Below, one piece after another: positions 4,315-58,582 of a DNA stretch of 64,000 bases; position 1 is the stretch's first letter; the number at the start of each line of letters is the position of its first letter. The stretch is from Terriglobia bacterium. Its GTDB lineage: Bacteria > Acidobacteriota > Terriglobia > Terriglobales > Acidobacteriaceae. Under the pieces are notes generated by a model. That model had not been told where the DNA came from. It made no database searches and saw only the letters and a list, made by a program, of their open reading frames with translations. Where the stretch lies: contig JAIQGL010000012.1 of assembly GCA_020072585.1 (NCBI GenBank), positions 1 through 64,000 of the forward strand. The letters run 5' to 3'. The translations under genes and the position numbers were made by a program.

Positions 4315-4343
4315 CGACGCCGCAAAAGGAGAACAAATACGCC

Positions 4344-5057
4344 ATGAATCCGTCCTCAACCCGCAAACCAGAGTTGCCGACCGTTCCGGCAAAGTCCGAT
4401 GCCGAATTCCAGGCAGGGAAACGGCTTTATGCCGAGCAGTGGGGGAATGCCGTAGTGACCAACACGTACCTTAAGATCACCATCCTGGCGCTAAGCCTGC
4501 TGTGCGCCGGCTCGCTCTATATCGCCTATGCGACAGCCAAGAAGATCGACAGCTTTCATACCCGCTACATCCGCATTGACGCCATAGGGCGGGCCGAAGC
4601 CATCAAATACGATGACCTCAGTTACAAGCCGCAGGAAAAAGAGATCAAATACTTCCTGACTGAGTTTTGCCGCCTGTACTATGGCCGCAACAAACTGACC
4701 ATCCGTGACGACCTCCGCCGCGCCCTGCTGTTCATGGACACGCAGCTTGCGAACAACGTCCTGGCTGCCTGGACCAAAGATAAGATAATCGACAACTTCC
4801 TATCTAGCTCTGCTGCGAATCAGGAAATCAAAGTCAACCGTATTGACATCGAAGACCTGCGGGCCGCGCCGTACAAGGCCACCGTCGAGTACGAATTGAT
4901 CTACAAATCGCCCCTTGATGGCAGCGTGATCAAACGTTCTCAATACACCGCCCACTTTGTTTTCGCTTTTCGCGACACCGTGAGCAATGACCTCATTCAA
5001 ATCAACCCGCTCGGTCTCGCCATTTCCTATTTCCGGGAAGACGAGGCCCTGAATTGA
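4344..5057 (+). CDS. virB8: VirB8/TrbF inner-membrane T4SS protein
   Basis: A 237-residue protein with one transmembrane helix at about residues 43-62, then a periplasmic NTF2-like domain containing RYIRIDAIGRAEAI and the family-like end NPLGLAISYFREDEAL. VirB8/TrbF links inner-membrane components of the channel. The open frame extends upstream to 4029, but that part overlaps virB6 in another frame. ATG at 4344, preceded by AAAAGGAGAAC, gives the right length and topology and is taken as the start. Confidence 0.88.
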   Translation: MNPSSTRKPELPTVPAKSDAEFQAGKRLYAEQWGNAVVTNTYLKITILALSLLCAGSLYIAYATAKKIDSFHTRYIRIDAIGRAEAIKYDDLSYKPQEKEIKYFLTEFCRLYYGRNKLTIRDDLRRALLFMDTQLANNVLAAWTKDKIIDNFLSSSAANQEIKVNRIDIEDLRAAPYKATVEYELIYKSPLDGSVIKRSQYTAHFVFAFRDTVSNDLIQINPLGLAISYFREDEALN

Positions 5058-5082
5058 ACACGCGCAAAGGAGTACCGCAATC

Positions 5083-5412
5083 ATGCCGCAGCCGCAGCTT
5101 ACGTTACCGCAACAGTATGGACGCTTTCTGGTGACGGGGGCCTTCGTCTTTGTCCTCGTCTTCTGGGGTCTCTCCCAATTCCTGATTTCTACCCACGATG
5201 CGCACCTCAATTTCGCCGCCGTCCGCCTGACCGCTAAAGCCTCTACCCACCAGCCCTTTTCCGTTTGGCTTCAGAACTTTGAAACGGCTTATCTGCCATT
5301 CTTTCTCCGGCAGCGCTCCTTGCTGGGTTGCTACATGATTGCCTCGACCTTCGCCTGGCTCGCCGGATTCTTTCATGACACAAAGATCCTGCGTAAGGAG
5401 AACACGCTGTGA
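5083..5412 (+). CDS. Small two-helix membrane protein in the T4SS operon
   Basis: A 109-residue protein with two hydrophobic helices (about residues 15-35 and 80-96) flanking a polar loop. No family is recognised. It starts 25 bases after virB8 and its TGA overlaps the GTG of virD4 (GTGA), so it is co-translated with the coupling protein. A role beside VirD4 or in mating-pair stabilisation is inference from position only. Confidence 0.72.
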   Translation: MPQPQLTLPQQYGRFLVTGAFVFVLVFWGLSQFLISTHDAHLNFAAVRLTAKASTHQPFSVWLQNFETAYLPFFLRQRSLLGCYMIASTFAWLAGFFHDTKILRKENTL

Positions 5413-6986
5413 CATTCCCCAATTTCAAAGACCGTCGTTTCTCAAACAAAGTCATCATGGCAACGGTGCTTTTGCACTTCATAAGCCTCATGATAGCCGC
5501 TCGTTTTGACCAACTCTGGCTTACCCAGGTCGCTCTCTACGGCACCCTCAGTCTCTATCTCGGTCTCATGCCGATTCTCTGGTTGTGGCACCGCGCCACC
5601 AAGCGCTTGCCCTCCGATGACACGCTGTCGGATATCCGCAGGAGCTTCGATGAAACCGAACGGCCTGCCTATGAGCCAAGCCGCTATTTCGCTTTTCAAA
5701 AGGGAATCTTCACCGGCCTCAATGATCGCCGCAAGCCTGTTTACGTCTCCTGGGAAGAATTCAACAGCACCCACATGCAGGTCATCGGCACCACTGGCGC
5801 AGGCAAAGGCGTCATGAGCACCATGCTGCTCGTCCAATGCGGGCTCAATGGCCAGCGCGTCATCATCTTTGACCCCAAGAACGATAAGCACGCTCCCAGC
5901 GTCATTGCTCTTGCTGCGAAGCAGGCAGGTTTGCCATTCCATCTGATCGACTTGCGACCGGAGACGCCGCCCCAGGTCAACCCTTTTCGCTTTGCGACGT
6001 ATGCGGAGATGAAAGAGCTTTTGACTACAACCTTCGATCTTGCAGATAAGGGAGAGGCCGCTGACTTCTACCGGCTTATCGACCGCAGGGCGGCCCGCGA
6101 TGTAATACGCCGTGCCGGATCGAACCCGACCATCAAACGGATGCTAGAAGTCGCCGATGAAAGCCCGTTCATCACCGACGAAGACGCGGTTGCTTTTCTC
6201 GAAAAGCTCACCGAGATGACCGAACTTGACGCCATCGACACCAATGAGGGGCCAAATCTCGGCGAACTGATTTCCAGTCCCGGCTTTCTCTACATCATCG
6301 GCAGCATTCGCAGTGTCGAATCCATCCAGTGCCAAAAGCTGCTCTTGCTGCGCATCCTGCAAATCATCGAGAAACGTCCTGAAAACTTGGCTGACCGTCT
6401 GCCTATCGCCATGATGCTCGATGAGTTCAAGTACATCCTTTCACCGCCTGCATTGCAGGCGCTCGGGACGGTGCGGGACAAGAATTGCCATCTCATCCTG
6501 GCCCATCAGAGCATTGGTGACCTTGAAGAGTGCAAAGGGCTTGATCCCGCCGCCGTCCGCGGAGCAGTGCTGGAGAATACGGGAATCAAATTTATCTATC
6601 GGGCCAAAACCCCGGAGACGGCGCAATGGGCCTCAGAGCTTTCCGGAACCATCATTGCCAAAACCCGCCGCACCGATATTCAGCAATCCGCTTTCGATGC
6701 CGCGACTGCCCAATACAACGAAGTCGAAAGGGCACTGCTCACAACCAACGACATACTCGCCCTTCCCAAGCTGGTGGGAATGCTCTTTGGAGTTGGGTTG
6801 GCAAAACGCTGCCAAGCCGCCCGCATGCCAAAGGGCGAAAGGCCGCAGCTTACAGCCGCACCCAGGGCGCCGGAGATCCTTCTCAAGAACCGAGCCAAAG
6901 CAAAGATGACGCGACAGAACGAAGCCTTTGAGGCTGCATCATCTGCCGAGCGTTCGGACGATCCAACCCACGAGAACCTTACCTAA
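5409..6986 (+). CDS. virD4: VirD4/TraG-type T4SS coupling ATPase
   Basis: A 525-residue protein with two N-terminal transmembrane helices (about residues 15-32 and 40-60) and a soluble ATPase domain. The Walker A motif GTTGAGKG is at residues 127-134, followed by IIFDPKND. Walker B (IAMMLDEFKYIL) is near residue 335. The glutamine switch HLILAHQSIGDLEE fits hexameric DNA pumps of the VirD4/TraD/TraG group. These recruit the relaxosome to the T4SS. The start is GTG overlapping the previous stop. The relaxase gene follows 5 bases later. Confidence 0.93.
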   Translation: MTFPNFKDRRFSNKVIMATVLLHFISLMIAARFDQLWLTQVALYGTLSLYLGLMPILWLWHRATKRLPSDDTLSDIRRSFDETERPAYEPSRYFAFQKGIFTGLNDRRKPVYVSWEEFNSTHMQVIGTTGAGKGVMSTMLLVQCGLNGQRVIIFDPKNDKHAPSVIALAAKQAGLPFHLIDLRPETPPQVNPFRFATYAEMKELLTTTFDLADKGEAADFYRLIDRRAARDVIRRAGSNPTIKRMLEVADESPFITDEDAVAFLEKLTEMTELDAIDTNEGPNLGELISSPGFLYIIGSIRSVESIQCQKLLLLRILQIIEKRPENLADRLPIAMMLDEFKYILSPPALQALGTVRDKNCHLILAHQSIGDLEECKGLDPAAVRGAVLENTGIKFIYRAKTPETAQWASELSGTIIAKTRRTDIQQSAFDAATAQYNEVERALLTTNDILALPKLVGMLFGVGLAKRCQAARMPKGERPQLTAAPRAPEILLKNRAKAKMTRQNEAFEAASSAERSDDPTHENLT

Positions 6987-9014: not shown

Positions 9015-10021
9015 ACACCGCCAGCATACATCCCGGATTCCGACTGATCCTGCCTTATCTCAGACCCATCGAGAATCTGATTCTCGATCCAGAGATAAGC
9101 GAAATTATGCTCAATTCACCCTCAGACATATTCATTGAGAAGCAGGGAGTCATAGAAAAGGTCCAGGGCATCACCATTCCAAACGACCAATTGCGCGTGG
9201 CCGTACAAAATATCGCTCGTTCGCTTGGCGATGATATTTCGGAAGAGAAACCCATCCTTGATTCACGCCTGCCGGACGGCAGCCGGATTGCCGCTGTACT
9301 GCCGCCGTGCAGCATTCATGGAATTACCCTCACCATACGCAAATTCAATACCCGTAGCTTCACCATCGATGACCTCATTCGCATCGGCACGATCACCGAA
9401 CCAATCGCCGCTCTCCTGCAAACTGCCATCATCGAAAGAAAAAACATCCTTATCAGTGGCGGTACAGGTACAGGCAAAACTACCTTGCTCAACATCCTTG
9501 CCGACTTCATTCCTGAAGAAGACCGCTTGCTGGTGATCGAGGACACAGCGGAAATTCACATCCGCAAGCCCAACCTTGTCCGCTTTGAGGCACGCCGCCA
9601 ACAGGGACCAAAGATTCCAGCCGTCACAATTCGCGATCTGCTCAAAGCAAGCCTGCGACACCGGCCCGAACGCACCATCCTGGGAGAGATTCGCGGGGAA
9701 GAAGCGTTCGATCTCTTGCAGGCGCTCAACACCGGCCACAGCGGTAGTCTTTCCACCATTCACGCCAATTCCGCCGCCCAGGCGCTTTCGCGCTTTGCCA
9801 ATTGTGTCCTGCAAAGCGGAATTGAGCTGCCTTACAGCGCGATCAAAGCCAACATCGCCGACTCGATTCATCTGCTCGTTCATATCGAGCGTCGCCACGC
9901 CCGCCGCTACGTCAACGAGATCCTTGCCATAAAGAGCTTCTCCCCGACTGACGATACCTATCAACTCGAAACTCTATTCAATCGTAATCAGGACAATTTA
10001 TCCCAGGAGTCAAAGCAATGA
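9011..10021 (+). CDS. virB11: VirB11/TrbB-type secretion ATPase
   Basis: A 336-residue protein. Walker A is GGTGTGKTT at residues 150-158. It is followed by VIEDTAEIHI (Asp box/Walker B), then RHRPERTILGEIRGEEA and the His box with GHSGSLSTIHANS. These are hallmarks of the hexameric VirB11/CpaF/PilT superfamily. It provides energy for substrate transfer and T4SS switching at the cytoplasmic face. ATG overlaps the previous gene by 4 bases, and its own end overlaps topB by 4 bases, so all three are coupled. Confidence 0.95.
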   Translation: MNTASIHPGFRLILPYLRPIENLILDPEISEIMLNSPSDIFIEKQGVIEKVQGITIPNDQLRVAVQNIARSLGDDISEEKPILDSRLPDGSRIAAVLPPCSIHGITLTIRKFNTRSFTIDDLIRIGTITEPIAALLQTAIIERKNILISGGTGTGKTTLLNILADFIPEEDRLLVIEDTAEIHIRKPNLVRFEARRQQGPKIPAVTIRDLLKASLRHRPERTILGEIRGEEAFDLLQALNTGHSGSLSTIHANSAAQALSRFANCVLQSGIELPYSAIKANIADSIHLLVHIERRHARRYVNEILAIKSFSPTDDTYQLETLFNRNQDNLSQESKQ

Positions 10022-12135
10022 TCGTCGTACTCGCAGAAAAACCATCCGTCGCCCGCGACATCGCCGCTGTTCTCGGAGCCAATCAAAAAAAAGACGGCTA
10101 CTTTCAAGGGAACGGCTATCAGGTGACGTACGCCTTCGGCCACCTTGTTGCGATTGCCCAACCGGAGGAAATGAATCCCGCGTGGGGACAGCCTTGGAGG
10201 ATGGACCAACTTCCTATGATCCCAGCTCAATGGAAGTATCAGATCGCCGACAAAGCCGAGAAACAATTTGATTGCATTAAGAAGCTCTTCCTTCAACCCA
10301 ACACGACCAGCATCATCTGTGCCACCGACGCCGGACGCGAGGGCCAGCACATCTTTGACCTCATCTATCAATTGACCGGCTCAACCAAACCAGTCAATCG
10401 CCTCTGGATCAGCTCTCTAACCCCGGATGCCATCCGCGCCGGCTTCCGTGATCTCAAACCCGCCAGTGCCTTTGCCGACCTCTCGGCGGCCGCAGCTTGG
10501 CGGGCTCGCGCTGATTGGCTCGTAGGATTGAGCGCTACCCGCGCCTACACCTTAATCAATGGTCAAACATGCACTGTGGGCCGGGTACAAACGCCGACCC
10601 TGGCCCTTATCGTCAATCGCCAAATCGCAATTGAAAACTTCAAACCTGCACTCTTTTATGAAATCCAAGCGGTCTTTGAACCAGGGTTTACGACCAAATA
10701 CATCACTCCAGGCAATGATCCCCAAACACGCCTCCAAGACCGCGTTATGGCTCAAGCGATTTTCGACCAAATCTCGCCCATCCCAAGCGGCATCGTCGTC
10801 TCAGTTACGACCACAGAGAAAACGACCAAAGCCCCACCTCTCTTCGACCTGCTCACGCTACAGAAAGAGGCAAACAAGCGATTCGGGTACACCGCACAGG
10901 AAACACTCGACGTGGCCCAGAGTCTTTACGAGCAATACAAAGTGCTCTCCTATCCCCGCACCGAATCCCGGCATCTGTCCCATGACATGCTCCCGGAACT
11001 CCCAAACATCATTCGCGCGTTGCCAAAAGACCTTCCCACTGAGAGTGCTTTGATGGCGCTTAAGGCAGGCCTCAAGCTATCCAAAACTTATGTGGACGAT
11101 AACAAACTCACCGACCATCACGCCATCATTCCCACTCACAACGCCGCGCCATCCGATCTGCCAACAAAGCACCGCAACATTTATGACCTGGTTGCAAGAC
11201 GTTTCTTGAGCATCTTTCTGCCTGCCGAAGTTCGTGATGACACTACCGCCATCATCGAACTCGGCCAGCATTCATTCCGCGCCCTTGGTTCGATCATCAA
11301 GAAATTCGGCTCGACGCTGTTAAGCACTCAATCCGAACCCGCAGAGAAAAAGACCAGTGATGACATCGAGCCTTTGCCCCCGCTCTCCCAAGGACAAAAT
11401 GTTGCCAAACGAGCTGCCCAACTCAAAGAAGGAAAGACCACACCTCCCAAGCCCTATGACGATGCTGGCCTTTTAACCGCTATGAAGAATGCCGGGCAGG
11501 AGATTGACGATGAGGATCTCGCCGCCTATATGAAGCAAAGCGGCTTGGGAACCCCGGCCACACGCGCCGCTATCATCGAAAAGCTAATTGCGGTTGGCTA
11601 TATCGAGCGTAAAAAGAAATGTCTCTTCCCCACAGAGAAGGGAAAAGCTCTCATCAATCAGGTCCATCCCACCCTCAAAGATGTAGCTCTCACTGCCTCT
11701 TGGGAACAGCAGTTGGCCAATATCCAGGACGGAACCACGCCCACCAATGTCTTCGCAGCCGCAATCACTCAATTCATCCAGCATATCTTTCCCGAAATCA
11801 TCGCTACGCGGCCAGCAATGGCCGCCCTCTCCAACCCTAACGTTTACGGGCCTTGTCCGAAATGCAAAACCGGCACAGTACGCAAGACCATCAAGGGCGC
11901 CGGTTGCTCTCGCTTCAAGGAGGGTTGCAACTTCTCAATTTGGGGACAGATCAATGGCAAGAAGCTTACCGATGAGCACATCCGCCATCTTGCGACAAAA
12001 GGCCGCACTGGACTTATCAAAGGGTTCAAGAAGAAAGATGGAAGCGCAACCTACGATGCCTGCCTTGTGCTAACGAATGATTTCACAATCCGTCTAGAAT
12101 TCGAGAGCCACGCGAGGGCAGCAAAAACGGCATGA
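10018..12135 (+). CDS. topB: DNA topoisomerase III (type IA)
   Basis: A 705-residue protein starting with MIVVLAEKPSVARDIA (TOPRIM start), with CATDAGREGQ and the catalytic tyrosine Y312 in SYPRTESRHL. The RTESRH context is typical of TopB rather than TopA. The C-terminal part has a Cys pair (YGPCPKCKTGTV) followed by a later Cys pair, i.e. one zinc ribbon. TopB homologues are common on integrative conjugative elements, where they probably resolve transfer or replication intermediates. The 4-base overlap with virB11 puts it in the transfer operon. Confidence 0.95.
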   Translation: MIVVLAEKPSVARDIAAVLGANQKKDGYFQGNGYQVTYAFGHLVAIAQPEEMNPAWGQPWRMDQLPMIPAQWKYQIADKAEKQFDCIKKLFLQPNTTSIICATDAGREGQHIFDLIYQLTGSTKPVNRLWISSLTPDAIRAGFRDLKPASAFADLSAAAAWRARADWLVGLSATRAYTLINGQTCTVGRVQTPTLALIVNRQIAIENFKPALFYEIQAVFEPGFTTKYITPGNDPQTRLQDRVMAQAIFDQISPIPSGIVVSVTTTEKTTKAPPLFDLLTLQKEANKRFGYTAQETLDVAQSLYEQYKVLSYPRTESRHLSHDMLPELPNIIRALPKDLPTESALMALKAGLKLSKTYVDDNKLTDHHAIIPTHNAAPSDLPTKHRNIYDLVARRFLSIFLPAEVRDDTTAIIELGQHSFRALGSIIKKFGSTLLSTQSEPAEKKTSDDIEPLPPLSQGQNVAKRAAQLKEGKTTPPKPYDDAGLLTAMKNAGQEIDDEDLAAYMKQSGLGTPATRAAIIEKLIAVGYIERKKKCLFPTEKGKALINQVHPTLKDVALTASWEQQLANIQDGTTPTNVFAAAITQFIQHIFPEIIATRPAMAALSNPNVYGPCPKCKTGTVRKTIKGAGCSRFKEGCNFSIWGQINGKKLTDEHIRHLATKGRTGLIKGFKKKDGSATYDACLVLTNDFTIRLEFESHARAAKTA

Positions 12136-26541: not shown

Positions 26542-27046
26542 TGCTCTCCCCTCTCAAACGAGCCACCCGCTCTCACGCGGGGTGCATCTCCCCGGCTGGG
26601 GCTCCGCCGTCCAGATTCTAGCTAAGCATTTTCTTATCTCTTGGCTCCCTTGTCATGTGTCTCTTGCGACTATTTTTGGAGCAGCCCCAGTGGGTTAAGC
26701 AGAAGCACTTAGCACTATCCATTGCCAAAGGCGGTCTGCACGACTTAACTCCATCCGGCGAGAACGTTGTTAAACCTTGAGCCAATCGGTTCACTCTGCC
26801 TTGTTCCACTCCGTCGGATCGGGTAGGACGCCTCAAAGCGCAGAGGCTCGGACGGTCGCGACAGCAGCGCCGGTATCGCGCCAAAACATAAATCCCAAAA
26901 CAGTTTTGTCACGCACCGCGCTTCCCATCGCGCCCTGCCACCCTTCCCGACTGCGTTTCCTCCTGTCCGCCGCCCACCTGTTTTGTTCCCGCTTCGCGGC
27001 CCTGTGAAGAACAAAACAGCCGGTGACGGCAAACAGGAGAAATAAA
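26542..27046. other. CT-rich gene-free leader of the HipA-like gene
   Basis: No gene is supported in these 505 bases. The last 100 bases are CT-rich, with an 11-bp inverted repeat close to the start codon. Confidence 0.55.
26978..27019. repeat. 11-bp inverted repeat in front of the HipA-like gene
   Basis: CTGTTTTGTTC (26978-26988) is the exact reverse complement of 27009-27019; inside, CCGCTTCGCGG forms a second small stem. The ribosome site CAGGAG lies 13 bases later, so a folded leader could affect translation, or a repressor could bind there. Confidence 0.65.
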
Positions 27047-45868: not shown

Positions 45869-45900
45869 ATGTGGCTCTATTCTATTGACTTGACCGTTTT

Positions 45901-46062
45901 TAGCAATTAGCAACTGGCAAATAGCAATTAGCAAAATCTTTTACCGCAATGAACGCAAAGATCGCAAAGGAGATTTCATTTTCCACTCTCTCTTTCTCCC
46001 TTTGCGCCCTTCGCGTCCTTTGCGGTGGAAGGGTTTGGCTAACTGCCAGTTGCTAATTGCTA
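45901..46062. repeat. 162-bp palindromic intergenic element
   Basis: TAGCAATTAGCAACTGGCA (45901-45919) is the exact reverse complement of 46044-46062. Between, CCGCAAAGGA-like motifs also form an imperfect inverted pair (about 45942-45970 against 46000-46030). Several AATTGCTAATTGCT units follow. It looks like a MITE or REP-like hairpin inserted between lysR and the oxidoreductase. Confidence 0.75.
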
Positions 46063-46086
46063 ATTGCTGATTGCTGACCGCTCTAC

Positions 46087-48675: not shown

Positions 48676-48769
48676 TGGGTGAATGAACGCACGGCCCGCG
48701 AAACTGCAAGCCAGCGTCAAGCCAACACCGCGAGTCAATTACAATGGCGCTGCAAAAAAAGGAGACTAC

Positions 48770-49750
48770 ATGCGCGCCGTGCTGTGCAAAGAATGGGGTG
48801 GACCAGAAAAGCTGGTGGTGGAAGAGGCGCCTTCGCCCGCCATCAAAGAGGGCGCGGTGCGAATTGCCGTGCAGGCCGCGGGCATCAACTTTGGCGACCT
48901 GCTGCTGATCTCCGGCCAGTACCAGGAGAAGCCCGCGTTTCCATTCACGCCCGGCATGGAGGCCTCCGGTACGGTGACCGAAGTTGGAGCGGGCGTCACC
49001 ACTCTTCGCGCGGGCGACCGGGTAATGGCGCTGACCGGCACCGGCGCTTTCGCGGAAGAGGTCGTAGTGGACGCCAGCCGCGTTTACAAAATCCCAGACA
49101 AGATGGACTTTATCTCCGCCGCCGGATTTCCCGTGACCTACGGCACCTCGCACGGCGCGTTTGACTGGCGCGCGGACCTCAAGCCGGGCGAATGGCTGCT
49201 GGTCTTTGGCGCCGCCGGCGGCGTGGGGCTGACTGCCGTCGAAATCGGCAAGGCCATGGGCGCCACGGTGATTGCCTGCGCCCGCGGCCCGGAAAAACTG
49301 GAGATCGCGCGGCAGTACGGCGCGGACCATCTGATCGACTATTCGCGGGAAGACATTCGCGAACGCGTGAAGGCCCTCACCGGAGGCCGCGGCGCAGACG
49401 TGGTCTATGACCCCGTGGGCGGCGACGCCTTTGACGCCGGCCTGCGCTCGATCGCATGGGGCGGCCGCATCCTTATTATCGGCTTCACCTCCGGACGCAT
49501 TCCCCAGGTCCCGGCCAACATCCTGCTGGTCAAGAACATCAGCGTGATCGGCTTTTACTGGGGCTCCTACCAGGCGCGCAAGCCGGAGATGCTGCGCGAC
49601 TCTTACGCCATGTTGCTGCGCTGGTATGAAGAAGGCAAACTCAAACCGCATGTTTCGCAACACTTTGATCTGAAGGACGTGGCAGCGGCCATGGAGCTGC
49701 TGCGGCAGAGAAAGTCGACGGGGAAAGTGGTGCTGACGACGGGACGGTGA
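48770..49750 (+). CDS. NADPH:quinone oxidoreductase-like protein (MDR)
   Basis: A 326-residue MDR protein: MRAVLCKEWGGPEKLVVEE, AAGINFGDLLLISGQYQ, PFTPGMEASGTVTEVG, VFGAAGGVGLTAVEIGKAMG and VYDPVGGDAFDAGLR. This is the QorA-like zinc-free group. ATG 48770 has AAAGGAG upstream; the frame begins earlier at 48683. It shares fold but only moderate similarity with 46087-47094. Confidence 0.93.
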   Translation: MRAVLCKEWGGPEKLVVEEAPSPAIKEGAVRIAVQAAGINFGDLLLISGQYQEKPAFPFTPGMEASGTVTEVGAGVTTLRAGDRVMALTGTGAFAEEVVVDASRVYKIPDKMDFISAAGFPVTYGTSHGAFDWRADLKPGEWLLVFGAAGGVGLTAVEIGKAMGATVIACARGPEKLEIARQYGADHLIDYSREDIRERVKALTGGRGADVVYDPVGGDAFDAGLRSIAWGGRILIIGFTSGRIPQVPANILLVKNISVIGFYWGSYQARKPEMLRDSYAMLLRWYEEGKLKPHVSQHFDLKDVAAAMELLRQRKSTGKVVLTTGR

Positions 49751-50507
49751 GCCTGGCGGTGTGCCTTGGTTTTTGGGCTTTTCAATTACCCGATTACCAA
49801 TCTCTGCCTCCGATCTTGGCTGTTCTCCGTGTCTCCGCGTCTCCGTGGTAGGTTTAGGTTTTCCGATTCCCGGCGATTTGGCGATTTTGGCAATCTCTTT
49901 GTGGCCCTCTGCCTGCGTCCTTCAGCCAGACCCCCACCCGGCATTTTCCCAACTCTCATTGCAAACAAAAGGCTTACACAAATCGACGCGCGGGTCGCCC
50001 GTGCGAGACGCTTGCGTGGCCCTTGGGTCTCGCTTGGGTCACCCTTGGGTCACCCAAACCCAATCCCAAGTCGGCAGAGGGTCGCACCTTGTAAAAGCCG
50101 CGCGGCGCAACAATCGCCGCGCCTCAACCCGTCATCCTGAACGAGCGGTGCAACCGGGAGTGAAGGATCCCAAACCGGCGTAGCCCACCAAATTTTGGGC
50201 TGACTGCTGAGTGCTGATGGCTGAATGCTTGTTTTCAAAGATCGCCGCCCAAGGCACACTTCCACCTCGGGCAGAATATCGTACTTTACCATTTGTTCGC
50301 CTTTGTGTCAAGCGAAAATGCCTGATTTCGCCCGAGAAAGCAATTGCCCACGGGGTGGAGCAGGCCATTCATGCCTGCGCTGAGAGGCAAGGAGAGGCCC
50401 CTTCCTCGCGCCTGCGGCCCGCGCGTAGCCAAAGGCGCAGCGCGCTTCCCATTGCGGCTCGCCCTTGCCGTGGTATAAGTTCCTAGGCAACAACCGCCGG
50501 AGCAAGG
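49751..50507. other. Non-coding region with direct repeats before the type III R-M operon
   Basis: No supportable gene in 757 bases. It contains CTTGGGTCACCC-type direct repeats near 50030-50055, and a CT/GC-rich stretch (50380-50480) with the left copy of an 18-bp inverted repeat. GCCGGAGCAAGG precedes the res ATG. Confidence 0.55.
50401..50418 (+). repeat. Left copy of 18-bp inverted repeat bracketing the R-M operon
   Basis: CTTCCTCGCGCCTGCGGC here is the perfect reverse complement of 56854-56871, on the far side of the res-orf-mod operon; match continues imperfectly inward for about ten more bases. Confidence 0.7.
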
Positions 50508-53500
50508 ATGCCTCAAACAAGTACCGTGGGCCAAGCTGAGGAAATTGCAACTAAGCGCCTCGTCGTTATTGAAGACCCGATCCTCAATAGCCCGTTTGAA
50601 GTTCCTACCAGGCATTTCAAATTCACTGAAGAGGGTATTAGTAACGAAATTGTTCCAAAGCGCCGTTCCAGCGCTTATTTCATCCCCGTCCCGCGTCCAC
50701 GCAACAGCCGCAAGGGTGCCCAGCTCGCCTTTGATACCGAGTGGACAGCCGACCGGCTCCAGGAAAATGACTTTATCAATCGGGTTCGTGCCAAAGTAGC
50801 GCAATGGAGCGCCAGCAACTACGCCAACTCACCCATCACAAGCGTCACGCGTCAACTTCTCGCGCACTGGAGAGAGCAAGACCGTGAGCGTCGCCTGTTT
50901 TTCTGCCAGCTTGAGGCCGCCGAGACCGCCATATATCTGACGGAAGTTGCTCCCAAGTGGGACCCTTGGATTGAAAACCAGCTCCGGGACGCAAATATGG
51001 CCGCCAACCCTGAGCTTTACCGTATCGCTCTCAAAATGGCAACGGGCAGCGGTAAAACCGTGCTAATGGCCATGATCATTGCATGGCAGGCGCTTAACAA
51101 ATTCGCCAATCCGCAAGATGCCAGATTTTCAGACAGCTTTCTCGTTGTCACGCCCGGAATCACCATTCGTGACCGTCTTCGCGTTCTGCTCCCCAATGAC
51201 ACGGAGACTTACTACAAAGGGCTGGATCTGGTTACGCCGGAGCAGCTTGTCCAACTGGAAGCCGCAAAGATAATCATCACCAATTTTCACGCATTCAGGG
51301 CGCGTGAACTGGTTGATGCCAGCAAACTAACCAAGAGCATTCTTAGAGCCAAAGGAAACGGCGCAGGCATGTTTACCGAAACGCCGGACCAGATGGTCCG
51401 ACGTGTCTGCCGCGAGTTAGGCAACAAGAAGAACATAGTTGTTCTAAATGACGAAGCGCACCATTGCTACCGTCGCAAGCCGGATGCTGAAGAAGAAAAG
51501 CTTTCGGGCGACGACAAGAAAGAAGCCCAGCAACGCGAGGAAGAAGCCCGCATCTGGATTTCAGGCCTGGAGGCGGTTAAGCGCAAAATTGGTGTTCGCG
51601 CCATCTATGATGTTTCGGCCACACCATTTTTTCTGCGCGGCTCCGGCTATCCTGAAGGCACTCTTTTCCCTTGGGTCGTGTCTGATTTCTCTCTGATCGA
51701 TGCCATTGAAGCTGGCATCGTCAAGGTTCCGCGCGTCCCCGTGGATGACGACCAGATGCGCGGCAATCAGCCAACCTACCGCGATCTCTGGCTGCGCATC
51801 CGCAATGAACTGCCCAAAAAAGGGCGCAAGAAGGCGGCTATTAGCGGCGAGCCAAAGCTGCCCGCTGTGCTTGAGGGCGCGCTGCAAAGCCTTTACGCCA
51901 ATTACCGGAAATCGTATGAGCTATGGGCACAGAGCGAATCTGCCAAATCGGGCGATTCCACCCCGCCGGTTTTTATCGTTGTCTGTAGCAACACCAATGT
52001 TTCCAAACTGATTTATGACTACATCGCGGGCTGGCCAAAAAATCTGCCGGATGGAACTGAAATCCCTGTTCCCGGCAAGCTTGAGCTTTTTGACAATGTG
52101 AAAGACGGGCGCTGGCTCTCTCGCCCAAACACCATCCTCATAGACAGCCAACAACTCGAATCGGGCGAAGCCATGAGTGACGATTTCAAGAAAATCGCCG
52201 CCCGCGAGATTGATGAGTTCAAGGAAGAGTATCGTCGGCGCTTCCCTGGCCGGGACGTGGAACAGCTCACCAATGAAGACCTTTTGCGTGAGGTCATGAA
52301 TACGGTGGGAAAACGCGGCAAGCTGGGCGAGCAGGTGAAGTGCGTGGTATCCGTTTCCATGCTGACGGAGGGCTGGGACGCAAACACCGTGACTCATATC
52401 CTCGGAGTACGCGCCTTCGGAACGCAGCTGCTTTGCGAGCAAGTGGTAGGTCGCGGCCTGCGCCGGATGTCTTATGTGCCGGTCATCAAGGATGGCGCCG
52501 AACGCTTTGAAGCTGAATACGCTGAAATATATGGTGTCCCGTTCTCCTTCATTCCTTGCTCGGGCTCAACTGCTGAGCCTAGGCCGCAGAAGACTCCCAC
52601 CCGCGTGCGCGCTCTGGAAGAACGAATTGCTAGCGAGATAACATTCCCACGCCTCACCGGATACAAGTACGATCTTCCCGCGGAGACTTTGGAAGCCCGA
52701 TTCACCAAAGACTCACAGATGGTTCTTTCCGTCGAGGACACCGTCCCCACCAAAACGGAGAATGCTCCAATCGTCGGCAAGTCCAGCATTCATACCCTTG
52801 ACGATCTCAAGACGCGCCGCGTCAAAGAGGTCGCATTCCTGCTCGCCAAGATTACCCTGGAAAAATACTTCCGGGCCGACAGTAAGCAGAGCACGTTTGA
52901 CCTCAATCAGCACGAATTTGTTCCGGATGTAAAGGTTTGGCTGTTTCCTCAAGTTCTGGCGATTACCAATCGGTGGCTGGCCGAGTGCGTCACCTGCCGC
53001 GACAACACATTTCCCCAGATGCTCCTGCTTTTGCGTCTGGCCCATGACGCTACAGACAAGATTTATCAGGCCATCGTGGCTTCCACTCGCGGAGAGAAGC
53101 TGCTAAAGCCCACACCGTTCCCCTATGACACTGTAGGAACGACCCGATATGTGGACTTCAGCACGTTTCGCCCAGCGTGGGCGACACGTGCGGACAAATG
53201 CCACATCAGCCATATCGTCGCGGACACCGGTGCATGGGAACAAAAAGTGGCCCAGAGTCTGGAAGATATGGAAGAGGTGCGGGCATACGTAAAGAATGAC
53301 CGCTATGTTGGATTCAAAATTCCCTACGCGGTGAACGGAGAAGAAAAGAATTACGAGCCGGATTTCATCACGCGTGTGGATGACGGCCATCCAGATTTGT
53401 TGAATTTGATTGTCGAAGTCTCCCGGCGTGCGGATGCCAAAGAACGCGAAGAAGCCAAGAAAACCAAGGTAGCCACCGCCCGTAATTTCTGGGTTCCCGC

Positions 53501-53615
53501 CGTCAATAATGACGGACGCTTTGGCCGCTGGGCCTTCATTGAAATCACCGACCCATGGAACACTGTCAACGAGATCCGCTCGACTCTTAGGAAACAAAGT
53601 ACAGAAAGGAAATGA
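50508..53615 (+). CDS. res: Type III restriction enzyme Res subunit
   Basis: A 1035-residue SF2 helicase/nuclease. Walker A G180-S-G-K-T184 (KMATGSGKTVLMAM), DEAH box D315-E-A-H (VVLNDEAHH), YDVSATPF, and the motif VI-like QVVGRGLRRMSY. The C-terminal endonuclease region has EPDFITRV (D952) and LIVEVSRR (E970), where the usual catalytic lysine reads Ser972; WVPAVNNDGRFGRWAF follows. It would cleave DNA after translocation with Mod. ATG 50508. Order res before mod is the reverse of the common arrangement. Confidence 0.92.
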   Translation: MPQTSTVGQAEEIATKRLVVIEDPILNSPFEVPTRHFKFTEEGISNEIVPKRRSSAYFIPVPRPRNSRKGAQLAFDTEWTADRLQENDFINRVRAKVAQWSASNYANSPITSVTRQLLAHWREQDRERRLFFCQLEAAETAIYLTEVAPKWDPWIENQLRDANMAANPELYRIALKMATGSGKTVLMAMIIAWQALNKFANPQDARFSDSFLVVTPGITIRDRLRVLLPNDTETYYKGLDLVTPEQLVQLEAAKIIITNFHAFRARELVDASKLTKSILRAKGNGAGMFTETPDQMVRRVCRELGNKKNIVVLNDEAHHCYRRKPDAEEEKLSGDDKKEAQQREEEARIWISGLEAVKRKIGVRAIYDVSATPFFLRGSGYPEGTLFPWVVSDFSLIDAIEAGIVKVPRVPVDDDQMRGNQPTYRDLWLRIRNELPKKGRKKAAISGEPKLPAVLEGALQSLYANYRKSYELWAQSESAKSGDSTPPVFIVVCSNTNVSKLIYDYIAGWPKNLPDGTEIPVPGKLELFDNVKDGRWLSRPNTILIDSQQLESGEAMSDDFKKIAAREIDEFKEEYRRRFPGRDVEQLTNEDLLREVMNTVGKRGKLGEQVKCVVSVSMLTEGWDANTVTHILGVRAFGTQLLCEQVVGRGLRRMSYVPVIKDGAERFEAEYAEIYGVPFSFIPCSGSTAEPRPQKTPTRVRALEERIASEITFPRLTGYKYDLPAETLEARFTKDSQMVLSVEDTVPTKTENAPIVGKSSIHTLDDLKTRRVKEVAFLLAKITLEKYFRADSKQSTFDLNQHEFVPDVKVWLFPQVLAITNRWLAECVTCRDNTFPQMLLLLRLAHDATDKIYQAIVASTRGEKLLKPTPFPYDTVGTTRYVDFSTFRPAWATRADKCHISHIVADTGAWEQKVAQSLEDMEEVRAYVKNDRYVGFKIPYAVNGEEKNYEPDFITRVDDGHPDLLNLIVEVSRRADAKEREEAKKTKVATARNFWVPAVNNDGRFGRWAFIEITDPWNTVNEIRSTLRKQSTERK

Positions 53616-53616
53616 G

Positions 53617-54045
53617 ATGGCGCTCAAGAGTAAAGAATGGTTTTACAAGCAATGTCTGCAACGAGTCAAAACACATGACCGGATGGCTCACTTGTGCTGG
53701 AACATCCTTGAAAAGGGAATCGGCCAGAGCGACAGCACTCGAGGTCATGTGACTCAAGCAGTCGGAGTGGCCCAGCAATTCTTGACGGACAACCCCGGCC
53801 TTGTACAGGTTATCCGCGCTGCAGATCCGACCAGCGCGTTCGACGTTGCCGGGAATCAGCAGGTCAGCAACGCGTTCAAGCAGTGGATTGCTCCAAAGAA
53901 TGGTGAGCTGAGCGAGCGCTTTGGATACAGCTACGATACTTTCAAAAATATCGTGACACCCTCCCTCGGTGGTAAGCCAAAGGGCGGTGGCGGCGGCGAC
54001 GACGAATTCAAGAAGGTGCTCCGTCTAATGGCAGAGTTTTATTGA
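53617..54045 (+). CDS. Small protein inside the type III R-M operon
   Basis: A 142-residue protein (MALKSKEWFYKQCLQRVKTH), helical, with a Gly-rich segment (GKPKGGGGGDDE) near the end. It starts 2 bases after the res stop with AAAGGAAATGAG as ribosome site, and mod follows 16 bases later. Not recognised; a specificity, regulator or inhibitor role is only a guess from location. Confidence 0.75.
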   Translation: MALKSKEWFYKQCLQRVKTHDRMAHLCWNILEKGIGQSDSTRGHVTQAVGVAQQFLTDNPGLVQVIRAADPTSAFDVAGNQQVSNAFKQWIAPKNGELSERFGYSYDTFKNIVTPSLGGKPKGGGGGDDEFKKVLRLMAEFY

Positions 54046-54061
54046 TAAGGTATTAGAATCC

Positions 54062-56821
54062 ATGTCCCAGATAAAAACGAAGCCAATAGTTTCTATTCGT
54101 CACAAAACGAAGCGGGTTAACATTCCGACGGAGGAACTCCGCGACTTTGTGGCCGATCAGGAAAAGACCCCAGTGGGGGTTCCATATCCACGCGATCCTT
54201 CACTCGATCCTCAGTTGGTGTGGAAAGGTAAGGACGAGCAGGATTCGAAACCGCTTCAAGTCCCCGCCGTTCCAATTTATATTCAAGAAAAGATCCATCC
54301 GCAGGCGGTCGTTGAAGATCTGCTGAGCTGCGGCAAAGAACATAGTCAGCCTCAGATGCAGCTTTACGCTGACTTTAACGGTCTTCCCGAAGAATTTGAA
54401 AAACGGGTCGATTTCTATCATTGGAACCAGAACTGGTCGAATCGCATGATCCTAGGCGATTCTCTAATGGTAATGACTTCTCTTGCTGACAAAGAGGGCC
54501 TTAAGGGGAAAGTCCAAATGATTTACTTCGATCCTCCTTACGGCATTAAGTTTGGTTCTAACTGGCAGGTAAGCACACGCAAACGAGAAGTAAAAGACAA
54601 AGCGGAAGACGCCACACGCCAACCGGAGCAAATTCGAGCTTTCCGGGATACCTGGAAGCTCGGAATTCATTCCTATCTCGCATATTTGCGGGATCGGTTG
54701 GTCGTAGCTCGAGACCTGCTTACCGAAACCGGCAGCATCTTCGTCCAGATCGGTGACGAGAATATACACCTTGTGAGGTGCCTCCTCGACGAGGTATTTG
54801 GAAGCAATAACTTCGTTGCAAATATCGCCTTCAAGAAAAAGAAGATGCCTCTCGGCGAAACCTACATCTTCACGATGTGCGACTACCTTGTCTGGTATGG
54901 CAAGGATGCCACAAGAACCAAATTTAAGAAGCTTTTCAGTGTTCGAAACGACTCTGAGGAGGGAGATTACGGCTATATCGAGACAGCCGCAGGCGAGTGC
55001 CTGTCGCGCGCCAAAGCAACGGATATCACGCCCGATTCAGGCGCAAAGCTTTTTCAGTCAATGGATTTGCGCTCCTCGGGGCGTACGGAATCCTGCGTTT
55101 TCGATTTCGAGTTTGCAGGTCAAAGATTCTCCCCCTCAGCTGGCAAGAGCTGGAAAACAAATCGAAATGGGATGCAAAAGCTCCTGCTGGCTGGCCGATT
55201 GTTTTTCCCTGGCGATTCGCTTCGGTACAAGTTGTATTTTGATGATTATCCCGTTCAAGAAATTAGCCATATGTGGATGGACACCCAAGGCGCTACCGAC
55301 AAGGAATATGTCGTCCAAACCAGTACGAAGGTTGTCGAACGCTGTCTGCTAATGACTACAGAGGCAGGCGATCTTGTTTTTGACCCCACCTGTGGCAGCG
55401 GAACAACTGCGTACGTTGCCGAGCACTGGGGACGCCGTTGGATTACCACTGACACAAGCCGAGTGGCTTTGGCGCTTGCTCGTACCCGTCTGATGTCCAG
55501 CCGCTTTCCCTACTACATTCTTTCCGACTCGCCTGAGGGTGTGCAGAAAGAATCTGAGATTACCAACGTCTTCCGATCTGACGCGAAGACGCAAGGGGAC
55601 GTGACCAAGGGTTTCGTTTACAAACGAGTTCCTCACGTCACCCTCAAGTCTATTGCCAACAATGAAGAGATTGATGCCATTCATACCCAGTGGCAGGACA
55701 AGCTGGAGCCCATTCGCGCCGAACTGAACAAGCAGCTCAAACAAAAATGGGAAGACTGGCAGATACCTCGCGAATCCGAGGCAAACTGGCCTGCCAAAGC
55801 AAAGGAAATACACCACCAGTGGTGGTCTTTGCGCGTCGAACGCCAAAATGAAATTGATGCCTCCATCGCATCGCACGCCGATACCGAGCAGCTTTACGAC
55901 CAACCTTACGAAGACAACTCACGGATTCGAGTGACCGGACCTTTCACCGTAGAGAGCCTCTCTCCCCATCGTGTCATCGCCGCCGAGGAAGATGAGCCGA
56001 GCTCAGCGGCCGAGGCCAGTACCGAGTCTTCCGCCAACTTCGCTCAGACCATCCTTGAAAACCTGCGCAAGGCTGGAGTGCAGAACACAATCAAGAACGA
56101 ACGCCTCAAATTTGAGCGCCTTGACCCGTATGCGGGCATCTACCTAAATGCAGCCGGCGAATACATGGAAGGAAATAAAACGAAGCGGGTCGCCGTCTGC
56201 CTGGGGCCGGAGTATGGCACCGTGGGACCCGACTTGGTGAAGGAAGCAGCCAAAGAAGCCGTGCAGGGCCTGGGCTTTGATCTGCTCATTGTCTGCGGGT
56301 TCGCGTTTGATCCGCACGTCGGCGAAGAGGTCAAACGCTACGGCAAACTCGTGATTCTGCCCACGCGCATGAACAATGACCTCGCCATGGGCGATGAATT
56401 GCTGAAGAAGACCGGTGCAGGGAATCTCTTTATGGTCTTTGGCGAGCCTGATATCAACATCGACAAGCAGAAAGACGGCACGCTCACGGTAACAGTCAAA
56501 GGCGTGGACGTTTACGACCCCACCACCGGCCAGATTCGCAACAGCAGCACTGACGACATCGCCTGCTGGTTCATCGATACCGATTACAACGGCGAAAGCT
56601 TCTTTGTCCGCCACGCCTATTTCACCGGTGCAGACGAACCCTACGAGAAGCTCAAGAAGGCATTGCGCGCCGAAATCGACGAGGCCGCATGGGCATCGAT
56701 CTACTCAACCGTAAGCCGCCCATTCCTGCGCCCCCAACCCCGCGACAAGAAACCTCCGCAGATTGCCGTGAAGGTTATCAACCATTACGGTGACGAGGTT
56801 ATGAAGGTGTTCAAAGTCTGA
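54062..56821 (+). CDS. mod: Type III adenine-N6 DNA methyltransferase Mod subunit
   Basis: A 919-residue beta-class N6-adenine methyltransferase: motif IV DPPY at D157 (MIYFDPPYGIKFGSNW) precedes motif I FDPTCGSGTT at 440-449, the beta-class order. The region between would hold target recognition. After about residue 560 there is a long extra part (helical, with KQLKQKWEDWQI, and a Rossmann-like KLVILPTRMNNDLAMG) beyond normal Mod length (about 600-700). It modifies the recognition site and guides Res. Confidence 0.92.
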   Translation: MSQIKTKPIVSIRHKTKRVNIPTEELRDFVADQEKTPVGVPYPRDPSLDPQLVWKGKDEQDSKPLQVPAVPIYIQEKIHPQAVVEDLLSCGKEHSQPQMQLYADFNGLPEEFEKRVDFYHWNQNWSNRMILGDSLMVMTSLADKEGLKGKVQMIYFDPPYGIKFGSNWQVSTRKREVKDKAEDATRQPEQIRAFRDTWKLGIHSYLAYLRDRLVVARDLLTETGSIFVQIGDENIHLVRCLLDEVFGSNNFVANIAFKKKKMPLGETYIFTMCDYLVWYGKDATRTKFKKLFSVRNDSEEGDYGYIETAAGECLSRAKATDITPDSGAKLFQSMDLRSSGRTESCVFDFEFAGQRFSPSAGKSWKTNRNGMQKLLLAGRLFFPGDSLRYKLYFDDYPVQEISHMWMDTQGATDKEYVVQTSTKVVERCLLMTTEAGDLVFDPTCGSGTTAYVAEHWGRRWITTDTSRVALALARTRLMSSRFPYYILSDSPEGVQKESEITNVFRSDAKTQGDVTKGFVYKRVPHVTLKSIANNEEIDAIHTQWQDKLEPIRAELNKQLKQKWEDWQIPRESEANWPAKAKEIHHQWWSLRVERQNEIDASIASHADTEQLYDQPYEDNSRIRVTGPFTVESLSPHRVIAAEEDEPSSAAEASTESSANFAQTILENLRKAGVQNTIKNERLKFERLDPYAGIYLNAAGEYMEGNKTKRVAVCLGPEYGTVGPDLVKEAAKEAVQGLGFDLLIVCGFAFDPHVGEEVKRYGKLVILPTRMNNDLAMGDELLKKTGAGNLFMVFGEPDINIDKQKDGTLTVTVKGVDVYDPTTGQIRNSSTDDIACWFIDTDYNGESFFVRHAYFTGADEPYEKLKKALRAEIDEAAWASIYSTVSRPFLRPQPRDKKPPQIAVKVINHYGDEVMKVFKV

Positions 56822-56853
56822 TCTTCTAGCGCGCTCCGCTTCGCTGCGCGCAT

Positions 56854-56871
56854 GCCGCAGGCGCGAGGAAG
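56854..56871 (-). repeat. Right copy of 18-bp inverted repeat bracketing the R-M operon
   Basis: GCCGCAGGCGCGAGGAAG is the reverse complement of 50401-50418. It lies 33 bases after the mod stop and next to a GCGCGC-rich hairpin (56830-56851). Confidence 0.7.
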
Positions 56872-56908
56872 AACCTTTTTCGTTCCCGCGTGGTTAAATA
56901 GCTTCTTC

Positions 56909-58582
56909 ATGAAATTCTGCTCTCAACTCGTTATTGTCTTATTTCTCGCCATACCTCTTTTCGCCCAATCCGCTCCGCCCCGCATCTTCTTCTCCGATCT
57001 TGAGAGCGGCCCCAACATTGGCGGACAGAACAATCGCGGCGTCTGGGTGACGATCTGGGGCAAGGGATTTGGCGCGGCGCGGGGCAACTCGACCGTTACG
57101 GTCGGAGGGGGCGCGGCGGCGGATTATCCCATCTGGACGGACACGAAGATCACCTTCCAGCTTGGGCCGGCGGCGAAGACCGGCGAGATCGTTGTGCATG
57201 TAAAAGGGAAAGATGCAAGCGCAGCCAGTAATGGACTGCCGTTTGTTGTCCGCGCGGGAAAGATCTTCTTTGTCGCCGTGAATGGCAGTGACCACCGCCG
57301 CGGAAGCCTTGACTTCCCGTGGCGGACGATCATCCATGCGAAAAACAAGCTGTCCGCCGGGGATGTGGCTTATATAAAAGACGGGGTCGCACAAACTTCT
57401 GAAGACAGCTTTACCGCGAACGTGAGCATGGACCGCGATGGCGGCAACAATTCCGGCAAGCCCGATGCGCCGAAAGCGCTGGTGGCGTATCCGGGAGCGC
57501 GGGTCACGATTGGCAAAGCGCACGGATTGGAGTTCGGCATGCGCACGCCGAACATACCGGCGCGCGAAGACTGGTGGGTGATTTCACAGCTGCATATTAT
57601 CGGCGGCACGCAGGCGATTGAAATCAGCGGAACGGGCTGGAAGATTGTGGGGAATGACATTGAATGTCCCGGTGCGGATGGGCAGGTAGGTTGTGTTGAA
57701 ACCAGCGGGGCCAGCCGGATCAAATTTTACGGGAACGAAGTGCATAATGCGGGCACGCCGCCAACATCGTCAAAGTATTATCACGCGGTTTATTTCAGCA
57801 CGGAATCCAACCACATTGATGTGGGATGGAACCATATCCACGACAATTTCACGTGCCGCGCGATCCAGTTCCATTCGTCGCCGCTATGCAATCCGGGTTG
57901 CGGCGCCAGTGACGAGACTGGCCACAACCAATTCGATTTGCATGTGCATGACAATTTGATTCATGGCGACAACTGTAACGGGATAAATTTCGCCACGGTG
58001 GATCCCGCAAAGGGCGTGGTGGAGGCCTATAACAATGTGATTTATCACGTGGGACTGATGGACCCGAAGGGTGAAGGCGGCGCGTTCTCCTGCATCTACG
58101 TGGCGGGGATCACGAACCACGGCCGCGCGGGGACGGGCACGGTGGAGGTCTTTAACAACACGCTCTTTGACTGCGGCGCCAATCGCTCCAGAAACTCTGA
58201 TGGCTCACGTGGGGCATTCAGCGTGGGAGGCGGACCGGCGCAGCTGACGATGCGGCTGCGCAACAACATTGTGTACCAGCTGCCGGGGGAGATTTATATC
58301 GATGGCGTGAAGGGGCAGATCAGCGGCGAGAAGAATCTCTGGTTCGGCGCAGGAAACGGACCGGCTGAAACGCAGGGCAACATCAATGCCGATCCTCAGT
58401 TTGTGAATCTTGCCGGCTTTGATTTCCATCTTCGCGGCACAAGCCCAGCGCGCGAGGCCGGTACGGCGGCTTTGCCCAGCAATCCATTTGTTTTTGGCAG
58501 CGCACAAGCAAGGGACAAAGATGGCGTGTTGCGTCCGCAGGGCAAAGCGTCTGCGCTGGGAGCGTATGAAGTTCCGCGATAG
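56909..58582 (+). CDS. Secreted IPT/TIG and right-handed beta-helix protein
   Basis: A 557-residue protein from ATG 56909 with a signal peptide ending LFAQS. An IPT/TIG-like domain (about 25-115: GVWVTIWGKGFGAARGNSTV) precedes a right-handed parallel beta-helix (about 120-540) with repeated GNxxHxxG/NxVY turns (WKIVGNDIE; NLIHGDNCNG; YNNVIYHVG; FNNTLFDCG). Similar proteins include pectate-lyase-like and sugar-binding surface proteins. No catalytic residues assigned. Confidence 0.85.
   Translation: MKFCSQLVIVLFLAIPLFAQSAPPRIFFSDLESGPNIGGQNNRGVWVTIWGKGFGAARGNSTVTVGGGAAADYPIWTDTKITFQLGPAAKTGEIVVHVKGKDASAASNGLPFVVRAGKIFFVAVNGSDHRRGSLDFPWRTIIHAKNKLSAGDVAYIKDGVAQTSEDSFTANVSMDRDGGNNSGKPDAPKALVAYPGARVTIGKAHGLEFGMRTPNIPAREDWWVISQLHIIGGTQAIEISGTGWKIVGNDIECPGADGQVGCVETSGASRIKFYGNEVHNAGTPPTSSKYYHAVYFSTESNHIDVGWNHIHDNFTCRAIQFHSSPLCNPGCGASDETGHNQFDLHVHDNLIHGDNCNGINFATVDPAKGVVEAYNNVIYHVGLMDPKGEGGAFSCIYVAGITNHGRAGTGTVEVFNNTLFDCGANRSRNSDGSRGAFSVGGGPAQLTMRLRNNIVYQLPGEIYIDGVKGQISGEKNLWFGAGNGPAETQGNINADPQFVNLAGFDFHLRGTSPAREAGTAALPSNPFVFGSAQARDKDGVLRPQGKASALGAYEVPR

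What the first reader, a model, noticed from the sequence alone, without database searches (positions are those of the whole stretch)
50401..56871. 18-bp inverted repeat bracketing a type III R-M operon
A perfect inverted repeat, 6.4 kb apart, sits about 90 bases before res and just after mod, with imperfect extension. It may mark the ends of a mobile or invertible defence cassette. A related tract GCGCTTCCCAT-GCG occurs at about 26917 in the ICE and about 50442 here, hinting at shared repeats.
Basis: partly seen in the sequence, partly recalled or inferred. Interest (0 to 1): 0.55.

Follow-up and report, generated by a model that had tools for sequence, protein, structure and literature searches.

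The report
Dispersed palindromic repeats flanking restriction operon
The matching sequences on either side of this bacterial defence operon are two copies of a small hairpin-like repeat that is scattered through the genomes of its genus and often sits beside transposase genes; they mark a spot whose gene content differs between sister species, but they are not proven ends of a mobile element.

Summary
The 18-bp perfect inverted repeat is real (50401-50418 +, 56854-56871 -) and exceeds chance. It is not a private pair of ends. Each arm is the core of a ~46-bp GC-rich repeat (50399-50446 +, 56828-56873 -), found 28 times in the host genome and 143 times in 8 of 9 genomes of the genus at E<=1e-4 (up to 40 are the model's own rows). 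Its first hairpin shows one clearly compensatory pair.

Copies lie within 500 bp of 8 of 62 Y1-transposase matches (0.29 expected) and of 0 of 150 ABC controls. It resembles the REP/TIR repeats of RAYTs, without their known foot motifs.

In sister G006 the left flank and a diverged left copy persist, followed by a different, type IIG-like gene. In G004 the same flanking genes enclose other genes. So this is a repeat-marked variable locus.

Inward-facing pairs occur at six loci, four around defence-type genes. But no target duplication was seen, and outer neighbours are defence-like as often as inner ones. A cassette moved by its repeats is possible, not shown. The 26918 tract is no copy.

The parts
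50399..50446 (+). left copy of the dispersed repeat (contains the 18-mer arm 50401-50418)
   Evidence: model R2, 51.8 bits, E 2e-12; the copy is one of the rows R2 was built from
56828..56873 (-). right copy of the dispersed repeat (contains the 18-mer arm 56854-56871), directly after mod
   Evidence: model R2, 61.9 bits, E 3.5e-15; also one of the model's rows
50508..53615 (+). res: type III-like restriction subunit, 1035 aa
   Evidence: Pfam ResIII 3.4e-10 and RE_endonuc 1.3e-6; NCBIfam restr_BPTD_3080 1155 bits, cut-off 800; PADLOC REase_III only 2.5e-9
53617..54045 (+). small ORF between res and mod, 142 aa, function not known
   Evidence: sequence; the longer frame 53509-54045 matched no family
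54062..56821 (+). mod: type III-like N6-adenine methyltransferase, 919 aa
   Evidence: Pfam N6_N4_Mtase 1.8e-28; PADLOC MTase_III 2.3e-294; DPPY and DPTCGSGT motifs
49806..50379 (.). left intergenic flank, alignable in pieces to sister genome G006 up to about 20 bp before the left copy
   Evidence: blastn pieces against L125; alignment
48683..49750 (+). left flanking gene, zinc-type alcohol dehydrogenase-like
   Evidence: Pfam; orthologues in G004 88% and G006 86%
56909..58582 (+). right flanking gene with TIG domain
   Evidence: Pfam TIG 6.3e-7 on the longer frame; orthologues in G004 78% and G006 77%; start chosen by me

Best explanation
The inverted repeat is two inverted copies of a dispersed, hairpin-like intergenic repeat of the REP/TIR kind, associated with Y1 (HUH) transposases including RAYTs in this genus. 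The copies flank a variable intergenic spot between an alcohol dehydrogenase-like gene and a TIG-domain gene, which here holds a type III-like R-M operon and in sister species other genes. Shown: the repeat family; one compensatory pair in its first hairpin; proximity to Y1 genes; different content beside a positionally matching left repeat. Inferred: that the repeats spread by transposase action on single-stranded hairpins, and that the operon arrived by recombination or insertion at or near a repeat. The right copy, directly after mod, may also be transcribed as a 3' hairpin. No inversion switch is implied.
For: 143 copies at E<=1e-4 in 8 of 9 genus genomes, 28 in the host (only 150 candidates per genome were scored, so a lower bound; up to 40 are the model's own rows). 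Pair 10-16 is G-C in 22, A-U in 8 and G-U in 1 of 40 rows; cells changed on both sides 10, reached by 0 of 500 shuffles; 86% of cells paired against 16-52% when slid. Y1_Tnp: 8 of 62 matches within 500 bp, 0.29 expected; ABC control 0 of 150 within 500 bp, 0.66 expected. 5 of 18 RAYT-type frames have a copy within 35 bp, all in one of two clades (5 of 11 against 0 of 7). G006: flank alignable, diverged left copy (22.7 bits, E 0.0018), then a type IIG-like gene. G004: the same flanking genes enclose other genes and one copy.
Against: Single copies fold no better than shuffles as DNA (z 1.13, -1.02, 0.71, -0.27, 0.40) and RNAalifold alone found few pairs; the structure counted was drawn by me from these rows, and the counts of covarying pairs and of pair types are not unusual (96 and 118 of 500). 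Of the 8 near Y1 matches, 4 are RAYT-like (YIxxNP), 3 IS200-like (YIxNQ) and 1 was not typed, so the cognate transposase is not settled; clustering on the RAYT tree is weak (30 of 500 shuffles as low). 54 of 62 Y1 matches have no copy within 500 bp. The known GT[AG]G foot is absent. Uniform placement ignores that repeats and mobile genes share variable regions. In G006 the two flanking genes lie on different contigs and the right flank has no copy. The terminator scan lists nothing at the right copy.
Confidence: 0.8

Rival explanations
1. The two copies are true ends of a mobile cassette: the R-M operon, like some other single defence operons in the genus, lies between inward-facing repeats and is moved in trans by a RAYT or related transposase.
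For: Six inward-facing pairs 0.8-7 kb apart, 0.88 expected under uniform placement, P 5e-5. They enclose the type III operon, a KAP NTPase operon (weak partial PADLOC match), a PDC-S28 helicase (3e-107), an HNH_2 nuclease (3.4e-21), a trypsin-TPR protein and an unknown gene. Gaps to the genes are often under 100 bp. Both window copies share a variant core found exactly in only 3 places in the host and 1 in G004 among genus genomes.
Against: Copies cluster in every orientation (13 pairs against 3.5 expected; 6 inward, 1 outward, 6 same-way), so the inward excess is mild. No target duplication by eye and no transposase between the arms. Of 8 related mod loci only G008 has a copy better than E=0.01. 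Defence-type PADLOC hits are as common on the outer side (4 of 13) as on the inner (15 of 44).
Confidence: 0.17
2. An invertible switch: recombination between the arms flips the operon.
For: The arms are inverted.
Against: No recombinase match among the ORFs between the arms; no reads were available; the family is dispersed.
Confidence: 0.01
3. Chance similarity of GC-rich sequence.
For: The 18-mer also occurs in 39 stretches of other genomes without the extension by eye.
Against: 0 of 60 random sequences had an inverted repeat of 18 or more; both arms belong to one family.
Confidence: 0.02

Closest known systems
REP sequences and REPtrons of RAYT (TnpA-REP) transposases (PMC6006769, sections 12 and 27 and passages read)
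   Same: Short palindromic intergenic repeats in dozens of copies; some copies directly beside RAYT genes
   Different: No GT[AG]G foot seen; also near IS200-like genes; paired copies here enclose an R-M operon
TIRtrons/TIRYTs, RAYT genes flanked by non-REP inverted repeats, a sharp group of them from Acidobacteria (PMC3733652, abstract, passages and section 16 read)
   Same: Moderately abundant non-GTAG repeat family beside tyrosine transposases
   Different: The GGGGWSAS motif is not seen in the consensus; copies near RAYTs here are mostly upstream and not a clean inverted pair
REPs as insertion targets for IS elements (PMC1525189, abstract read)
   Same: Foreign DNA placed beside palindromic repeats
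   Different: There the inserted DNA is IS elements within REPs; here an R-M operon lies beside or between copies
Type III restriction-modification (BPTD_3080 family res)
   Same: res and mod families matched
   Different: res precedes mod, with a small ORF between; mod is 919 aa. That mod usually comes first is recalled

Membership tests
REP element of a RAYT | Short repeat dispersed in many copies in one genome | tested here: met
   28 in the host, 143 in 8 of 9 genomes at E<=1e-4
REP element of a RAYT | Imperfect palindrome / hairpin | tested here: inconclusive
   one pair with 8 compensatory rows, but no excess stability over shuffles
REP element of a RAYT | 5' GT[AG]G foot at the hairpin | tested here: not met
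   not in the consensus of 40 copies (by eye)
REP element of a RAYT | Copies flank a cognate RAYT gene | tested here: met
   5 of 18 RAYT-type frames with a copy within 35 bp; the cognate is not settled because IS200-like genes also have near copies
REP element of a RAYT | Cleavage or mobilisation by the RAYT | not testable with these tools
   needs an experiment
TIR of a TIRtron | GGGGWSAS motif shared by some TIRs | tested here: not met
   not in the consensus (by eye); the source says only some TIRs share it
Ends of a transposon or mobile insertion cassette | Target-site duplication outside the arms | tested here: not met
   flanks TGAGAGGCAAGGAGAGGCCC and AACCTTTTTCGTTCCCGCGT do not repeat
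Ends of a transposon or mobile insertion cassette | Empty site in a relative breaking at the arms | tested here: inconclusive
   G006 and G004 carry other content, not an empty site
Type III R-M system | Mod methyltransferase with Res helicase-nuclease | tested here: met
   activity not testable here

The most novel reading that the evidence does not exclude
In this genus, inward-facing pairs of transposase-associated hairpin repeats delimit single-operon defence cassettes that are exchanged at repeat-marked spots by a RAYT acting in trans, giving RAYT/REP-like systems a role in shuffling defence genes.
Probability: 0.17. Interest if true: 0.75.

Novelty: new member of a known kind. Interest (0 to 1): 0.38.

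Why it matters
What RAYTs and their repeats do for their hosts is, as far as I recall, an open question. If repeats of this kind delimit and help to exchange restriction and other defence operons, they would have a testable role. Without that, the family still explains the inverted repeat without a new mobile element and marks a variable locus in this genus.

Tried and rejected
Rejected: invertible switch (no recombinase match between the arms; no reads to test). Rejected: a motif conserved across phyla; in the 39 stretches with the exact 18-mer I see no extension by eye (whether they are coding was not tested). Rejected: the tract at 26918 as a copy.

Weakened: my early impression (noted) that the inner side of the repeat faces defence genes. 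The first ten proteins were picked as long neighbours. At PADLOC E<=1e-10 the inner-side genes give 15 of 44: window mod but not res, HNH and Vsr fragment at L052 but not DUF2971 at L127, 7 of 9, 3 of 20, 2 of 10 (L240 among these was fetched knowing a methyltransferase was near). Outer-side genes give 4 of 13. No PADLOC baseline on random genes was run. Methyltransferases: N6_Mtase 1 of 25 within 1 kb (P 0.17) and 4 of 25 within 2.5 kb (0.41 expected); N6_N4_Mtase 1 of 27, the window itself.

Limits and rows left out: alignment A3 uses 40 of the 59 sites; weak, truncated or inserted copies and the L200 sites were dropped. Inner or outer neighbours were annotated for part of the 143 copies only. 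The ABC control uses the 150 rows listed of 561 matches. One of the 62 Y1 rows is below Pfam's cut-off. 52 of the Y1 loci plus L163 were scanned (53 sources; one search adds L164). The tree holds 18 RAYT-type frames; my filter left out most IS200-like rows. L173:3361-3712 was a wrong frame and not used. L053 and L057 end inside or near the mod gene, so their upstream ends were not seen. The closest relative (G003, 71%) has a 16.4-bit hit (E 0.019) about 256 bp beyond mod, in the opposite sense. PDB search of the bracketed L239 protein: no match.

Full report
Observation. In 60 Markov-1 random sequences the longest perfect inverted repeat was 17. In the host genome the exact 18-mer occurs only at these two places. 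In the named genome collection it occurs in 39 stretches, none with the extension by eye.

What it is. The core CGCGCCTGCGGCNNGCGCG occurs exactly three times in the host: the two window copies and one beside an HNH nuclease gene and a Vsr fragment. Among 61 genomes it has four further matches; by eye only the one in sister genome G004 carries the rest of the element. A model of these four copies gave matches at E<=1 in all 9 genus genomes, weak only in G001 and G008. A second model from 40 copies found 143 at E<=1e-4 in 8 of 9 genomes, 28 in the host; none in G001. Up to 40 of these are the model's own rows, and only 150 candidates per genome were scored. The majority consensus is CCTTCCTTGCGCCGCAGGCCCGCGCGCAGCGAAGCGGAGCGCG.

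Structure. In the first hairpin TGC-GCC-GCA alternates with TAC-GCC-GTA; the window copies read CGC-GCCT-GCG. On A3 the middle pair is G-C in 22, A-U in 8, G-U in 1 and unpaired in 9 of 40 rows; cells changed on both sides number 10, reached in 0 of 500 shuffles, while the numbers of covarying pairs and pair types are not unusual. Five folds of single copies as DNA were no more stable than shuffles beyond z -1.02. So a hairpin is likely but not strongly shown.

Link to transposases. Eight of 62 Y1_Tnp matches lie within 500 bp of a copy, 0.29 expected; of 150 ABC genes none within 1 kb, 1.12 expected. Four of the eight are RAYT-like by the YIxxNP motif, three IS200-like, one not typed. Of 18 RAYT-type frames, 5 have a copy within 35 bp, in one of two clades; the L275 copy is weaker (28.6 bits). 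In G004 two RAYT genes in a row have copies just upstream. This resembles REPtrons or TIRtrons; Acidobacteria appear in that literature. That the host is an acidobacterium is recalled from sequence style, not a result.

The locus. Orthologues of both flanking genes exist in G004 (same contig) and G006 (two contigs). In G006 the flank aligns to about 20 bp before the left repeat, a diverged copy follows (22.7 bits, E 0.0018), and a type IIG-like gene begins, 150 aa to the contig end (8.9e-17). In G004 the space holds an FAD-binding protein, a polyketide-cyclase-like protein (below Pfam's cut-off), a PEMT protein and an HNH-repeat protein, and one copy. The spot is variable, and a left repeat is shared by two species with different content. 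The two window copies share a rare core variant that the G006 copy lacks, so the left copy may also have been replaced or changed with the operon.

Brackets. Inward-facing neighbours 0.8-7 kb apart occur six times, 0.88 expected, P 5e-5; but pairs of every orientation are in excess, 13 against 3.5. They enclose the type III operon, a KAP NTPase operon, a PDC-S28 helicase, an HNH_2 nuclease, a trypsin-TPR protein and an unknown gene. Against a cassette: no target duplication; 1 of 8 related mod loci (G008, 47% identical) with a copy better than E=0.01, about 116 bp upstream of mod; and equal defence-type hits on outer (4 of 13) and inner side (15 of 44) at PADLOC 1e-10.

Right copy. It follows the mod stop by 6-8 bases. 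An RNA fold of the region gives -28.9 kcal/mol, but the terminator scan lists no site there.

Literature. Searches listed no paper whose title or shown abstract describes such brackets; the library is partial. PMC3733652 was read in abstract, passages and section 16; PMC6006769 in passages and sections 12 and 27; PMC1525189 in abstract.

Verdict. The pair is best read as two members of a transposase-associated, REP-like family at a variable locus. A role as cassette ends is possible but unproven.

Noticed in passing
window 45900-46063: A 20-bp perfect inverted repeat (TTAGCAATTAGCAACTGGCA), the longest in the window.
   Followed up: no
window 50283-50311 (-): A sigma-70-like promoter match TTGACA-17-TAAAGT on the minus strand, in a stretch alignable to G006 and similar by eye to the flank of L195.
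   Followed up: no
L199 (G006:C66:46400-54600) 4342-5682: A reverse-transcriptase gene (PADLOC RT_other 2.8e-149) about 200 bp from a copy.
   Followed up: no
L181/L284 (G004:C5 about 110400-112300): Two near-identical RAYT genes in a row with five copies at E<=1e-4 upstream of them, all in the same direction.
   Followed up: partly
L052 (G000:C3) about 9950-10200 (-): A truncated Vsr-like gene beside an HNH nuclease gene (PADLOC 1.1e-85) and a copy of the repeat.
   Followed up: partly
L163-L201 flanks, e.g. L163, L167, L173, L181: Several other palindromic modules (such as TAGCCCGG...CCGGG and GTGCCGTAAAG) stand next to the repeat on its outer side, giving mosaic intergenic arrays.
   Followed up: no
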